From Bryobacterales bacterium (lineage in GTDB: Bacteria > Acidobacteriota > Terriglobia > Bryobacterales > Bryobacteraceae): 64,000 nucleotides of DNA. The notes beneath the pieces are model-generated. The model made no database searches. It worked only from the letters and a program-made list of their open reading frames with translations, and was not told the origin of the DNA. Numbering within the stretch: the first letter of the stretch is position 1; every line of letters begins with the position of its first letter. The translations under genes were made by a program, and so were the position numbers. Positions 8,994-56,221 of this stretch are shown here, piece after piece. Location of the stretch: NCBI GenBank assembly GCA_003170295.1, contig PNAJ01000059.1:89186-153185 (forward strand). Reading direction: 5' to 3'.

Positions 8994-9058
8994 CGTTCGC
9001 GACTTATCGGGTTTCTTGCCACTAACTTCTGATGATACGTCTTGCCCGGTCCTGCAAT

Positions 9059-9087
9059 GGAACCGCGACCATCGGGAGCGGTCAGAC
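9059..9087. repeat. Degenerate REP-like repeat, family A variant
   Basis: GGAACCGCGACCATCGGGAGCGGTCAGAC resembles the family-A REP (CCGTGACC-N2-AGGGAGCGGT) in GCGACC-N2-GGGAGCGGT. It lies just upstream of the truncated antitoxin ORF. Confidence 0.45.
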
Positions 9088-12188: not shown

Positions 12189-13190
12189 CTAGACTTTCCG
12201 CAGCTTCGTGACGCGTCCGACTTCCACCCACTCCACCACGAAAATATTGCCCGCGTGATCGAAACTTGCGCCGTGCGGAGCCACAAATTTCCCCGGCTTG
12301 AAGGCATCCCGAGCCATCACGCGAGTCTTGCGCCACTCGCTCGCCGAATCGTCGCCCAGATGTTCTATCACATTGTTATCGCGGTCGATGAGCGTCACGC
12401 GCGCGCCTAAATCGGGGATCACGAACACGCCGTTACGCTCGCTGAAGTGACACGGCAAATTCGTCCCGCCGACAAACTTCACGTGTTTTCCATCGAGTGT
12501 GAAATATTGCAGCCGCGCATTGCCGCGATCCGCCACCAACAGCAGCGGTTCCGGACCGCGCAAATCCATCGTGATTCCGTGCGGACAATCGAGTTTCCCC
12601 GCTTCCTTCCCTTTTCCGCCGAACGTGCGAATATATTCGCCTTTGCTCGAGTACTGATTGATGAAGCTCGACCCATAACCGTCGCCCACATAAATATCGC
12701 CATTCGGCGCGATCGCGAGATTGGTCGGGCTGTATTTCAGTTGCGCCGTGCTGTACGAGGTAGACTCCTTCGGATACCCCAGCGTGAACACTTCCTCGCC
12801 CGCGAGCGTTGTTTTCACGACAATCCCGCGCTTGGTGTCGCACAAATAGAGGAATTCGTGGCGGCCTTCTTTATGGATGTGCAGGCCGTGCGCGCCGCCC
12901 TCAAACTGCGCCCCCCAGCTCTTCACGAATTTTCCCTTGGAGTCGAAAACCACCATGGTGTCGTGCTTTTCACTGGTTTTATTCACCGTGTGATGGACGT
13001 AGATGTGCCCGTGCGAATCCTCGCATACGCCGTGCGTGTTGCCGTATTTCAGGCCGGCGGGCAGCGCGCCCCAATCGGAAATCATCTCGTATTGAAATTC
13101 ACCCGATCCGACAATCGGATTTTTCGACCCGCTCTTGGACGATGCAATGACAGCGGGCGCAAGCGCCACGAATGTTCGACGGGACATCAT
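12189..13190 (-). CDS. Tat-exported NHL-repeat six-bladed beta-propeller protein
   Basis: 333 residues starting with a twin-arginine signal, MMSRRTFVALAPAVIASS. Repeated blades of NHL type follow: GLKYGNTHGVCEDSHGHIYVHH, PTNLAIAPNGDIYVGDGYGSS, CPHGITMDLRGPEPLLLVADRGNARLQYF and APHGASFDHAGNIFVVEW. Such propellers are scaffolds for binding or for lyase reactions (peptidylglycine-amidating lyase-like), but no catalytic set can be named. Its ATG overlaps the stop of the papain-like protease gene, so the two are cotranslated and both act outside the cytoplasm or at the surface. Confidence 0.85.
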   Translation of the reverse strand: MMSRRTFVALAPAVIASSKSGSKNPIVGSGEFQYEMISDWGALPAGLKYGNTHGVCEDSHGHIYVHHTVNKTSEKHDTMVVFDSKGKFVKSWGAQFEGGAHGLHIHKEGRHEFLYLCDTKRGIVVKTTLAGEEVFTLGYPKESTSYSTAQLKYSPTNLAIAPNGDIYVGDGYGSSFINQYSSKGEYIRTFGGKGKEAGKLDCPHGITMDLRGPEPLLLVADRGNARLQYFTLDGKHVKFVGGTNLPCHFSERNGVFVIPDLGARVTLIDRDNNVIEHLGDDSASEWRKTRVMARDAFKPGKFVAPHGASFDHAGNIFVVEWVEVGRVTKLRKV

Positions 13191-14593
13191 TTCGGTGGTT
13201 CCTCATCTTTCTTTACTAAGACCGCGGTCAGTTCCGGATCGGAGGCCTCCAGCACTTTTTTCGGGATGTAGCAATAGCCATTGTCGCCCCAATCGGTGCC
13301 CCAGGAATTTTTCACGATATAGAAATTGCCAGTGTAGCCGACCATCAGCATGGCGTGGCGTCCGTGCTGGCCGCTGGGCGCCTCCGCGGCATTGAACATG
13401 CCGTCGCGGCCGATGTCGGAAAACGCCTCCCCGGTGTTGATCGAAATATGCACCGGACAGCCCGCGCTCAGGACCTTGCGCGCGTCTTCGAGCGAAATAG
13501 GCAGAGGCGTCGCGGGCAGCACGTGCTTCCCCGCATCGGCCGAGAGCACTCGTTCCGAGGTCACCGGCACTTCGCTCGAATCCGGCCACAATTCCTGCCG
13601 GCAGGTACCCTGCTCCGTCAGCAAACGCCCTGGATCCGGACCTCCAGTAGTGCCGTCGCCGCCTTTGTACGCGTATTGATAATCTTTCGCGTCGCCCTGC
13701 ATGCGCTGAAATTCGAGCATCGTGAAACTCGGCGACAGCCGCGGCGAGCTGCCCGTCTTCATACTCGTCACCAGTTCGGTCGCATGCGTCCACGCGAATG
13801 CCGAGCACCGCGACGTCTGCCCCTGATCCCCGATCGGGGTCGCGAATTTGCGCAGGTCGACCGCGTCTTTCGGCTCGACCGCGGCGAACGCCGGCGGCAA
13901 GGGCTGCGGCGGAGCAATATCGCCTTTCTGCGGCACACTTACGTCGACATTGCTGAAATCGACCCCGGTATAACGAGCCATCAGAAGCGACAACGCCGCC
14001 GCCTCGATGAATCCAAATGCGTGCAGACGGCCGTCCTGCTGATAGAGATTGATGGTGTCCGCGCTGCCCGGCACCACCTGATTCAAGCCGCGCATGAAAC
14101 CCGGATCCGCGAACTCCTGATACCCTTGCGCGGCTAGTTTCGTCGCTTGCGTGTCGCCGAAATACTCGTGATTGCCGAACAGATTCTTGGCGGATTCGTC
14201 GTAGTCCGACTCCGTCCAATTGCCGTCGTCTTCCTGAAAATCATCGGCCGTGGCATTGGGAAAATCTTCAGCCGGGGGCGCGGTGTCGTCGTCGAGTTCG
14301 ACTAAATCATCGGGATCGGAAAAGGATTCGTTGACGTCGTCGTAGTATTCGTCGTCGTTATTATCGTTGTCGCCATCGCCTCCGGCCGCGGCGTCTTCCG
14401 GTTGATCGTCGGCGTCCGGTTGATCATCGTCCTGTTGATCGTCGTCTTGTTGATCGTCGGAGTCCTGATCGTCGTCGTCCTGATCGCCACCGCCGTCGCC
14501 GTCGCCGCCGTCACCACCGCCGTCGCCGTCATCGTCTTCCAGCCAATACCGCCGATTTTCGTCGCGAGGATCGTCGTAGGTCATCAGAGACAT
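13187..14593 (-). CDS. Papain-like (C1 family) cysteine protease with long Asp-rich N-terminus
   Basis: 468 residues when started at MSLMTYDD (ATG at 14593); the track's earlier start would translate a REP repeat. Residues 15-120 are extremely acidic, with DDD/DDQQ/GDGD runs that could bind calcium or work as a highly charged pro-region. The C1 protease domain follows: catalytic Cys263 in GDQGQTSRCSAFAW, His413 in GRHAMLMVGY and Asn429 in VKNSWGTDWGDNGYCYIP. The Cys motif differs from papain's QGxCGSCW, with SRC replacing GSC. No signal peptide is evident, so export is unclear. Overlaps the NHL gene start by four bases. Confidence 0.85.
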   Translation of the reverse strand: MSLMTYDDPRDENRRYWLEDDDGDGGGDGGDGDGGGDQDDDDQDSDDQQDDDQQDDDQPDADDQPEDAAAGGDGDNDNNDDEYYDDVNESFSDPDDLVELDDDTAPPAEDFPNATADDFQEDDGNWTESDYDESAKNLFGNHEYFGDTQATKLAAQGYQEFADPGFMRGLNQVVPGSADTINLYQQDGRLHAFGFIEAAALSLLMARYTGVDFSNVDVSVPQKGDIAPPQPLPPAFAAVEPKDAVDLRKFATPIGDQGQTSRCSAFAWTHATELVTSMKTGSSPRLSPSFTMLEFQRMQGDAKDYQYAYKGGDGTTGGPDPGRLLTEQGTCRQELWPDSSEVPVTSERVLSADAGKHVLPATPLPISLEDARKVLSAGCPVHISINTGEAFSDIGRDGMFNAAEAPSGQHGRHAMLMVGYTGNFYIVKNSWGTDWGDNGYCYIPKKVLEASDPELTAVLVKKDEEPPK

Positions 14594-14598
14594 CGTAC

Positions 14599-14623
14599 AC
14601 CGCTCCCTGCGGTCACGGCTCGG
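14599..14623 (-). repeat. REP repeat, family A (downstream of RAYT)
   Basis: On the minus strand this reads CCGAGCCGTGACCGCAGGGAGCGGT. It lies at the 3' end of the RAYT gene, and its GAGCCGTGA provides the last two codons and stop of that gene. It is inverted relative to the copy at 15131-15157 on the gene's other side. Confidence 0.8.
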
Positions 14624-15107
14624 AAGAATCGTAAATGGCCATTGGCTCTCCCTGCTTGTCAACCACGTACCCAAGAGCCGCTAAAACATCCTCCCGCTTC
14701 CACAACCAGCGAGTGCTGCCATGCCGAGCCCACCGCTTTCGATCTGACCCATCGAACGCCAGCTCATTCAAGCGCCGGCTCGCGAACGACTTGAGGTCGT
14801 TCATCACTCTCTCTGGCCGAACCTCCGCGTCGATCAGCAGGTGAACATGATTCGTACGCACATGCGCCGCCAACAAACTCCAACCGCGATTCGAACACCG
14901 GTCGATCACCGACGCCAACACCGCCTGCCTGCGGCCTTCATCCATCGAATAGGGTGGCTGGTCCATCTGATGCCGCGCCCACTCTACCCATTTTGTATCG
15001 CCCTCGACCAAGCGGCTTCCCGGAATATTGTGATTCCGATCCACGGAGCCCGGCGAATCACCATGCAGATGACATCCGTAGCAAGCGAACGTGATCAGAT
15101 AAGTCAT
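14613..15107 (-). CDS. REP-associated tyrosine transposase (RAYT, Y1/IS200-like)
   Basis: 164 residues. The Y1 transposase signatures are the N-terminal strand MTYLITFACYGCHLHG, the metal-binding His pair in HVRTNHVHLLIDA (H-x-H) and a Tyr in LGYVVDKQGEPM expected to be the nucleophile. RAYTs are domesticated single-strand nucleases that recognise REP hairpins. This gene is bracketed by inverted family-A REPs at 14599-14623 and 15131-15157, the classical REPtron layout, and the stop codon lies inside the downstream REP. I see no IS200 terminal ends or second ORF, so it is not a free insertion sequence. Confidence 0.9.
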   Translation of the reverse strand: MTYLITFACYGCHLHGDSPGSVDRNHNIPGSRLVEGDTKWVEWARHQMDQPPYSMDEGRRQAVLASVIDRCSNRGWSLLAAHVRTNHVHLLIDAEVRPERVMNDLKSFASRRLNELAFDGSDRKRWARHGSTRWLWKREDVLAALGYVVDKQGEPMAIYDSSEP

Positions 15108-15130
15108 CGAGATCGCGACTAAGCCGATTC

Positions 15131-15157
15131 TACCGAGCCGTGACCACAGGGAGCGGT
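15131..15157 (+). repeat. REP repeat, family A (upstream of RAYT)
   Basis: TACCGAGCCGTGACCACAGGGAGCGGT. The ends can pair as ACCG/CGGT and CC/GG around tandem G-A mismatches, an imperfect hairpin as in other REPs. It lies 24 bases upstream of the RAYT start and points the opposite way to the downstream copy. Confidence 0.8.
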
Positions 15158-15208
15158 GTCAGGCTTTCGCGCTAATACCCGAGCCCTTCTCGCCGATTAG
15201 AAACCATC

Positions 15209-17081: not shown

Positions 17082-17724
<643 letters not shown>

Positions 17725-26438: not shown

Positions 26439-26667
26439 TCTCGAAAACAGGGGCTTTGGCCGCTTCCGGTGGTCGCGGTTCTACAAAGCGTCCGGGCTCT
26501 CGCCCGGATGGACCGTGCCCAGAGGGCGCCCACAATCGGTCCGCAGATTGCCAACCTGCACCACAAACAAGTTTCACAGCGATCGGTGGGCCGAGGGCGC
26601 ATCCAAAACCCGAATGTTTCTCGGCCCAACGGCTGGGTAGCGATGGGGTGGATCCTGCAACCACACT
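26439..26667. other. Intergenic region with mosaic of short repeats, no gene seen
   Basis: The 229-base gap contains CGGGCTCTCGCCCG, a GCAGATTGCCAACCTGC palindrome and other GC-rich pieces. The short ORFs in both directions lack recognisable sequence. It looks like several repeat fragments laid side by side. Confidence 0.5.
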
Positions 26668-56194: not shown

Positions 56195-56221
56195 ACCGCT
56201 CCCTTTGGTCACGGCTCGGTA
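56195..56221 (-). repeat. REP repeat, family A
   Basis: On the minus strand TACCGAGCCGTGACCAAAGGGAGCGGT, identical to the 17240 copy. It sits between divergent galU and the alpha/beta hydrolase gene, about 41 kb from the RAYT gene. A GGCAGCGCATGGCGCTGCCCCAC palindrome lies close by at 56259-56281. Confidence 0.85.

What the first reader, a model, noticed from the sequence alone, without database searches (positions are those of the whole stretch)
14599..15157. Self-contained REPtron: RAYT transposase flanked by inverted REPs
Seen: a Y1-type transposase gene lies between two inverted copies of a 25-27 base imperfect palindrome (ACCGAGCCGTGACC-N2-AGGGAGCGGT). Further copies occur at 17240, 56195 and in variant form at 9059 and 17275-17364. 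Known: RAYTs in gammaproteobacteria act on REPs. Inferred: this is an acidobacterial equivalent, with the RAYT recognising the hairpin that has tandem G-A mismatches and seeding copies across the genome.
Basis: partly seen in the sequence, partly recalled or inferred. Interest (0 to 1): 0.72.

Follow-up and report, generated by a model that had tools for sequence, protein, structure and literature searches.

The report
Transposase gene bracketed by its repeats
A small single-strand-DNA transposase gene sits between two hairpin repeats whose copies are scattered over 100 times in the gaps between genes of this soil bacterium; it belongs to a little-studied class first described in 2018, and its relatives in Planctomycetota sit, remarkably, in frame inside an essential enzyme gene.

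Summary
It brackets a Y1/HUH transposase gene (14613-15107, minus). The label "RAYT" is only partly right. The protein misses NCBI's RAYT and IS200 cut-offs, has the Y....Q motif, and its REPs carry a CCGA foot, not GTAG. These are the marks of TnpA-Y1 "class 3" (Quentin 2018), already reported with about 600 REP copies in Solibacter, so the system is known in kind. New here: (1) the REP hairpin (4 bp, tandem G.A, 2 bp, small loop) is supported by compensatory changes. (2) REP and tnpA travel together: REPs abound in 13 of 18 genomes with class-3 tnpA but 2 of 43 without, and tnpA lineages have their own REP variants. The window's "variant copies" are two other REP families. (3) The REP-tnpA-REP unit matches a relative's unit exactly from REP to REP in another place, and the orthologous site of a second relative lacks it. 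(4) In six Planctomycetota genomes class-3 tnpA lies in frame inside valyl-tRNA synthetase, catalytic motifs kept. TnpA cleavage of REPs remains inferred.

The parts
14599..14624 (-). REP (family A, CCGAG-CCGTGACC-GCA-GGGAGCGG) at the 3' side of tnpA; contains the tnpA stop codon (14613-14615)
14613..15107 (-). tnpA, class-3 Y1/HUH transposase, 164 aa; HUH = H87/H89 (TNHVHL), tyrosine Y147 with Q152
15132..15157 (+). REP (family A) at the 5' side of tnpA, inverted relative to the left copy
14600..15161 (.). whole REP-tnpA-REP unit: the stretch homologous to L053 ends at the REPs on both sides
17241..17266 (+). solo REP, family A
56195..56220 (-). solo REP, family A
9058..9081 (+). REP of family B (foot TGGAA), matching the REPs beside another class-3 tnpA at G000:C15:9089-9544
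26460..26483 (-).
17275..17299 (-). REP of family C (CCGAACCCTGACC...), left half of an inverted pair
17340..17364 (+). REP of family C, right half of the inverted pair

Best explanation
The locus is a REPtron of TnpA-Y1 class 3: a single-copy HUH/tyrosine ssDNA transposase gene bracketed by two inverted copies of its own REP, with over 100 further copies of that REP spread mostly between genes. Shown: gene, REPs, copy number, intergenic bias, inverted pairs (REPINs), REP variants that go with tnpA lineages, a hairpin kept by compensatory changes, and a unit bounded by the REPs that is present in one relative elsewhere and missing from the orthologous site of another. Inferred from the known TnpA-IS200 and E. 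coli TnpA-REP enzymes: a TnpA dimer binds the folded single strand (4 bp, tandem G.A, 2 bp, small loop), uses the unpaired CCGAG foot to place the cut, forms a 5'-phosphotyrosine with Y147 and rejoins the strand elsewhere, spreading REPs and REPINs in trans and, rarely, moving the whole REP-tnpA-REP unit.
For: Pfam Y1_Tnp over cut-off. AlphaFold model (pLDDT 81) matches IS200 TnpA 2f4f, ISDra2 TnpA 2xm3 and E. coli TnpA-REP 4er8 at E about 2-3e-4. 140 copies, control 0; 123 of 140 intergenic where 86% of sequence is coding, p about 1e-84; 21 of 30 close pairs in -/+ order, mostly 41-55 nt apart. REP >=5 copies in 13/18 class-3-positive against 2/43 negative genomes, Fisher 1e-7; same genus only 6/10 against 2/13, p 0.04. 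Specificity: family B 41 copies here, 0 in 60 relatives; the CA/TG-stem variant beside the G020 tnpA has 24 copies in G020 and 0 here. Hairpin: of 92 tandem-GA skeletons within 200 nt of tnpA, found without asking for pairing, 74 form >=5 of 6 pairs; 12 of 113 far from tnpA and 7 of 252 in shuffles do; stems CCGC/GCGG, CCCC/GGGG, CCGG/CCGG, CGGC/GCCG, CCCG/CGGG and inner pairs CC/GG, GC/GC, AC/GT, CA/TG. None of the nine other Y1 genes of the genome has this REP within 1.5 kb. Unit: homology to L053 ends at the REPs; the G016 locus keeps protease-PilZ-Amt order without tnpA. Published class-3 traits agree.
Against: No biochemical test. Two genomes keep 6-18 exact REPs without a detected class-3 tnpA (G005, G022; drafts, or tnpA lost), and five class-3-positive genomes have fewer than 5 copies of this exact REP, though several have variants. 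The genomes are related, so the Fisher p is optimistic. The orientation of REPs around tnpA is not constant (window and L053 -/+, most others +/-, C63 and C15 +/+). A guide/cleavage-site rule could not be shown from flanks.
Confidence: 0.85

Rival explanations
1. It is an ordinary insertion sequence of the IS200 kind whose ends happen to be hairpins; the dispersed copies are decayed ends of old insertions.
For: Y....Q motif as in IS200 TnpA; the unit is missing from an orthologous site and present elsewhere in a relative; whole units sit inside host genes in Planctomycetota.
Against: NCBIfam IS200 equivalog cut-off not met, 30.2 against 55 bits. The three class-3 genes of this genome are only 50-71% identical, three of the nine in G053 54-62%: no burst of near-identical full copies. 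Over 100 solo REPs with sharp ~30-nt borders and regular inverted pairs. The ends are inverted repeats, unlike IS200/IS605 ends (established knowledge).
Confidence: 0.1
2. A true RAYT (class 2) REPtron as in gammaproteobacteria.
For: Same architecture and REP behaviour; the fold also matches TnpA-REP 4er8.
Against: RAYT equivalog cut-off missed, 21.3 against 80 bits; all class-3 rows are split from four class-2 proteins of the same genome with 100/100 support; no GT[AG]G foot.
Confidence: 0.03
3. The repeat is a functional element of the host (terminator or mRNA hairpin) and its place beside tnpA is a by-product.
For: Strong intergenic bias; slightly more often nearest to 3' ends (65 against 52).
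Against: Copy number follows tnpA more than host kinship; most inspected relatives of tnpA without this hairpin carry a different palindrome on both sides; no T tract after the hairpin.
Confidence: 0.05

Closest known systems
TnpA-Y1 class 3 (Quentin et al. 2018, PMC6006769), e.g. Solibacter usitatus Ellin6076
   Same: NHVH and YVVxxQ motifs, flanking atypical hairpins with CnGA foot, high copy number, three class-3 genes in one genome, Acidobacteria/Planctomycetes
   Different: No difference seen in kind; here the hairpin is defined by covariation, tnpA lineages are tied to their own REP variants, and unit movement is supported by an empty site
E. coli TnpA-REP / RAYT REPtron (class 2; PDB 4er8; PMC8266576)
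   Same: HUH/Y1 fold, gene flanked by inverted REPs, REPs and REPINs dispersed in intergenic gaps, mismatches inside the REP stem
   Different: GTAG foot, different Y-motif, longer stem, RAYT family cut-off not met, and class-2 REPtrons are not thought to move as a unit
IS200/IS605 TnpA (IS608, ISDra2)
   Same: Fold, Y....Q motif, subterminal hairpin with unpaired 5' tetranucleotide
   Different: Ends here are inverted; solo ends are multiplied; full copies are not
REPINs of Pseudomonas (PMC3116915)
   Same: Two inverted REPs with short spacer as the spreading unit; fixed spacing of 42 in G035 and 38/56 in G066
   Different: Different REP sequence and transposase class
TIRYT elements of Acidobacteria (Di Nocera 2013, PMC3733652)
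   Same: Y1 transposase genes of Acidobacteria flanked by repeated inverted repeats
   Different: Their proteins were not compared here; several of the listed repeats share GGGGWSAS, which this REP lacks

Membership tests
TnpA-Y1 class 3 | HUH motif NHVH and Y-motif Y....Q | tested here: met
   TNHVHL (H87, H89), YVVDKQ (Y147-Q152); H87, H89 and Y147 invariant and Q152 >=90% in an alignment of 15
TnpA-Y1 class 3 | flanking hairpins with 5' foot CnGA | tested here: met
   foot CCGAG in family A; nnGA[AG] beside relatives
TnpA-Y1 class 3 | hairpins in high copy in the host genome | tested here: met
   140 copies; 430 in G066
TnpA-Y1 class 3 | falls inside class 3 in a tree with the published reference sequences | not tested
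   reference sequences are in supplements that could not be read; only four class-2 proteins of the own genome were used
RAYT / TnpA-REP (class 2) | passes RAYT family model NF047646 | tested here: not met
   21.3 bits, cut-off 80
RAYT / TnpA-REP (class 2) | REP with GT[AG]G foot | tested here: not met
   CCGAG / TRGAA feet
RAYT / TnpA-REP (class 2) | own REP family dispersed between genes | tested here: met
IS200/IS605 insertion sequence | passes IS200 transposase model NF033573 | tested here: not met
   30.2 bits, cut-off 55
IS200/IS605 insertion sequence | several near-identical full-length copies | tested here: not met
   three class-3 genes, 50-71% identical; genome 83% complete
IS200/IS605 insertion sequence | single-strand circular intermediate | not testable with these tools
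   needs biochemistry
REPIN | two inverted REPs at short regular spacing | tested here: met
   21 of 30 close pairs -/+; fixed 42 nt in G035

The most novel reading that the evidence does not exclude
Class-3 REPtrons are an ssDNA transposon lineage that both seeds REPs and moves whole, with the REPs as its true ends. In Planctomycetota they have entered, in frame, a variable loop of valyl-tRNA synthetase (and DNA methylases), where the transposase is translated as an internal domain with its HUH and tyrosine residues kept: a transposase sheltered, intein-like, inside an essential enzyme.
Probability: 0.5. Interest if true: 0.75.

Novelty: new member of a known kind. Interest (0 to 1): 0.5.

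Why it matters
Class 3 was described from ten proteins and left as a possible link between insertion sequences and REP systems. These data give it a defined hairpin, REP variants tied to tnpA lineages over dozens of genomes, evidence that the whole unit can move, and an intact 164-aa enzyme with an exact candidate substrate. That makes the question of how a transposon turns into a REP system testable. The in-frame copies in valyl-tRNA synthetase are, as far as the searched literature goes, undescribed.

Tried and rejected
Guide rule (last two foot bases predict the cut dinucleotide, as in IS608): family A has YTA before the foot, family B TTA, family C CCA, G020 YTT; no consistent rule. TGA stop inside the REP as a fixed feature: rejected, L053 stops before its REP. 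One origin of the ValS insertions: neither shown nor rejected (AU p 0.29). PDB sequence search with the class-3 profile: only weak IS200 hits (E 0.09). Papers on translated REP peptides or transposase in valS: none found.

Full report
WHAT IS THERE. The described repeats and gene are present as stated. Four copies of ACCGAGCCGTGACCNNAGGGAGCGGT occur in the window where shuffles give none. The gene 14613-15107 (-) encodes a 164-aa protein passing the Pfam Y1_Tnp cut-off. The whole genome, 6.2 Mb in 168 contigs and 83% complete, has 140 copies at up to 3 mismatches against 0 for the reversed pattern.

THE REPEAT. Aligning 106 family-A copies shows conservation from about -4 to +25 and background outside: yCTA-CCGAG-CCGYGACC-NNA-GGGAGCGG-(T/A)G, a solo module of about 30 nt. 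Thirty close pairs were found, 21 in -/+ order, mostly 41-55 nt apart, i.e. REPINs. In G035 many pairs are exactly 42 apart with a shared spacer; G066 has 430 copies and spacings of 38 and 56.

THE HAIRPIN. A tandem-GA skeleton nnGA[AG]-N4-GA-N2-loop-N2-GA-N4 was searched in the 200-nt flanks of 76 class-3 genes without demanding pairing. Of 92 hits 74 form at least 5 of the 6 pairs, against 12 of 113 far from the genes and 7 of 252 in shuffles; the stems change in a compensatory way. So the structure is CCGY/GCGG, tandem G.A, CC/GG, loop of 3-4, with the foot unpaired. The energy model agrees for the C variants but prefers ACCG/CGGT for the window's T variant. The skeleton itself asks for GA and GA, so invariance of the tandem G.A is not an independent result. 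37 of the 76 loci lack this hairpin; most of those inspected carry another palindrome or repeat on both sides.

THE PROTEIN. HUH residues H87 and H89 and Y147 are invariant and Q152 nearly so over 15 sequences. An AlphaFold model (mean pLDDT 81; residues 16-33 poor) matches IS200 TnpA, ISDra2 TnpA and E. coli TnpA-REP. NCBI's RAYT and IS200 equivalog cut-offs are both missed. Motifs, CCGA foot and taxonomic spread are those given for class 3 by Quentin et al. 2018 (PMC6006769), who also report about 600 copies and three class-3 genes in Solibacter usitatus. The own genome likewise has three class-3 genes, plus nine other Y1 genes that lack these REPs nearby.

REP FOLLOWS TNPA. In 61 genomes, 13 of 18 with class-3 tnpA have at least 5 exact REPs, 2 of 43 without (Fisher 1e-7; within the genus 6/10 against 2/13, p 0.04). 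REPs match their own tnpA: family B (foot TRGAA) lies on both sides of the C15 tnpA, has 41 copies in this genome and none in 60 relatives; the G020 tnpA has REPs with an inner CA/TG stem, 24 copies there, 5-7 in two relatives, 1-2 in a few others and none here.

THE UNIT. Window and L053 (another genome, other neighbours) align at 72.5% DNA identity from REP to REP and nowhere outside. In G016 the order C1 protease - PilZ - Amt is kept (61, 43 and 81% protein identity) with a short gap and no tnpA; two further relatives keep protease and Amt without tnpA. The unit was therefore gained here or lost there; gain is simpler. Base-level junctions cannot be fixed at this divergence.

BEYOND THE WINDOW. 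49 of 392 Planctomycetota genomes carry class-3 tnpA. In G063, G265, G435 and G439, and in two more of the G265 family (G460, G461), the tnpA frame is open on both sides and lies at the same place inside valyl-tRNA synthetase, between ...SDQWYVKVTDDRL and ...WCISRQLWWGH. The flanking REPs, where found, are translated in frame (PLPHGRGS, SRDREGA). Most other ValS genes are uninterrupted there, and five of the G265 family have only a loop of 76-100 residues, one with a REP-like peptide. HUH and tyrosine motifs are kept although the embedded TnpAs are only 44-53% identical among the first four genomes. Similar in-frame units sit in DUF1156 methylases (L050, L054, same place in the protein by eye) and a methylase-like protein of G358. 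Whether these fusions are translated whole is not known.

VERDICT. A real, well-supported class-3 REPtron: known in kind, with new evidence on hairpin, specificity and unit movement. Enzyme action on the REP is inferred, not shown.

Noticed in passing
L056, L195, L196, L197, L336, L337 (Planctomycetota genomes G063, G435, G439, G265, G460, G461): Class-3 tnpA, mostly with its REPs, in frame at one spot inside valyl-tRNA synthetase; no stop in a frame of 1271-1345 aa in the four read in full; HUH and Y motifs kept. Relatives have an empty or short loop there.
   Followed up: partly
L050:2927-4846, L054:2120-7135, L198: Class-3 tnpA in frame inside DUF1156 DNA methylases (same place in two distant genomes) and inside another methylase-like protein (G358).
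   Followed up: partly
L054:2120-7135: In-frame REP pairs in the methylase enclose long low-complexity tracts (GFGADIGRGSDIG...), as if the REPIN spacer had expanded in frame.
   Followed up: no
G000:C168:97343-98215 (locus L105): A cluster of three REP families (A, B, C) occurs twice, about 670 bp apart, as a tandem duplication.
   Followed up: no
G066 (L049, L315-L334): 430 exact REP copies with two fixed REPIN spacings (38 and 56), a good population for studying REPIN spread.
   Followed up: partly
window 13187-14594 (-): Papain-like (C1) protease gene with a long Asp-rich N-terminus; the left REP lies directly before its start codon.
   Followed up: no
G005, G022, G018: Genomes with 6-18 class-3-type REPs but no class-3 tnpA found: orphan REPs or assembly gaps.
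   Followed up: no
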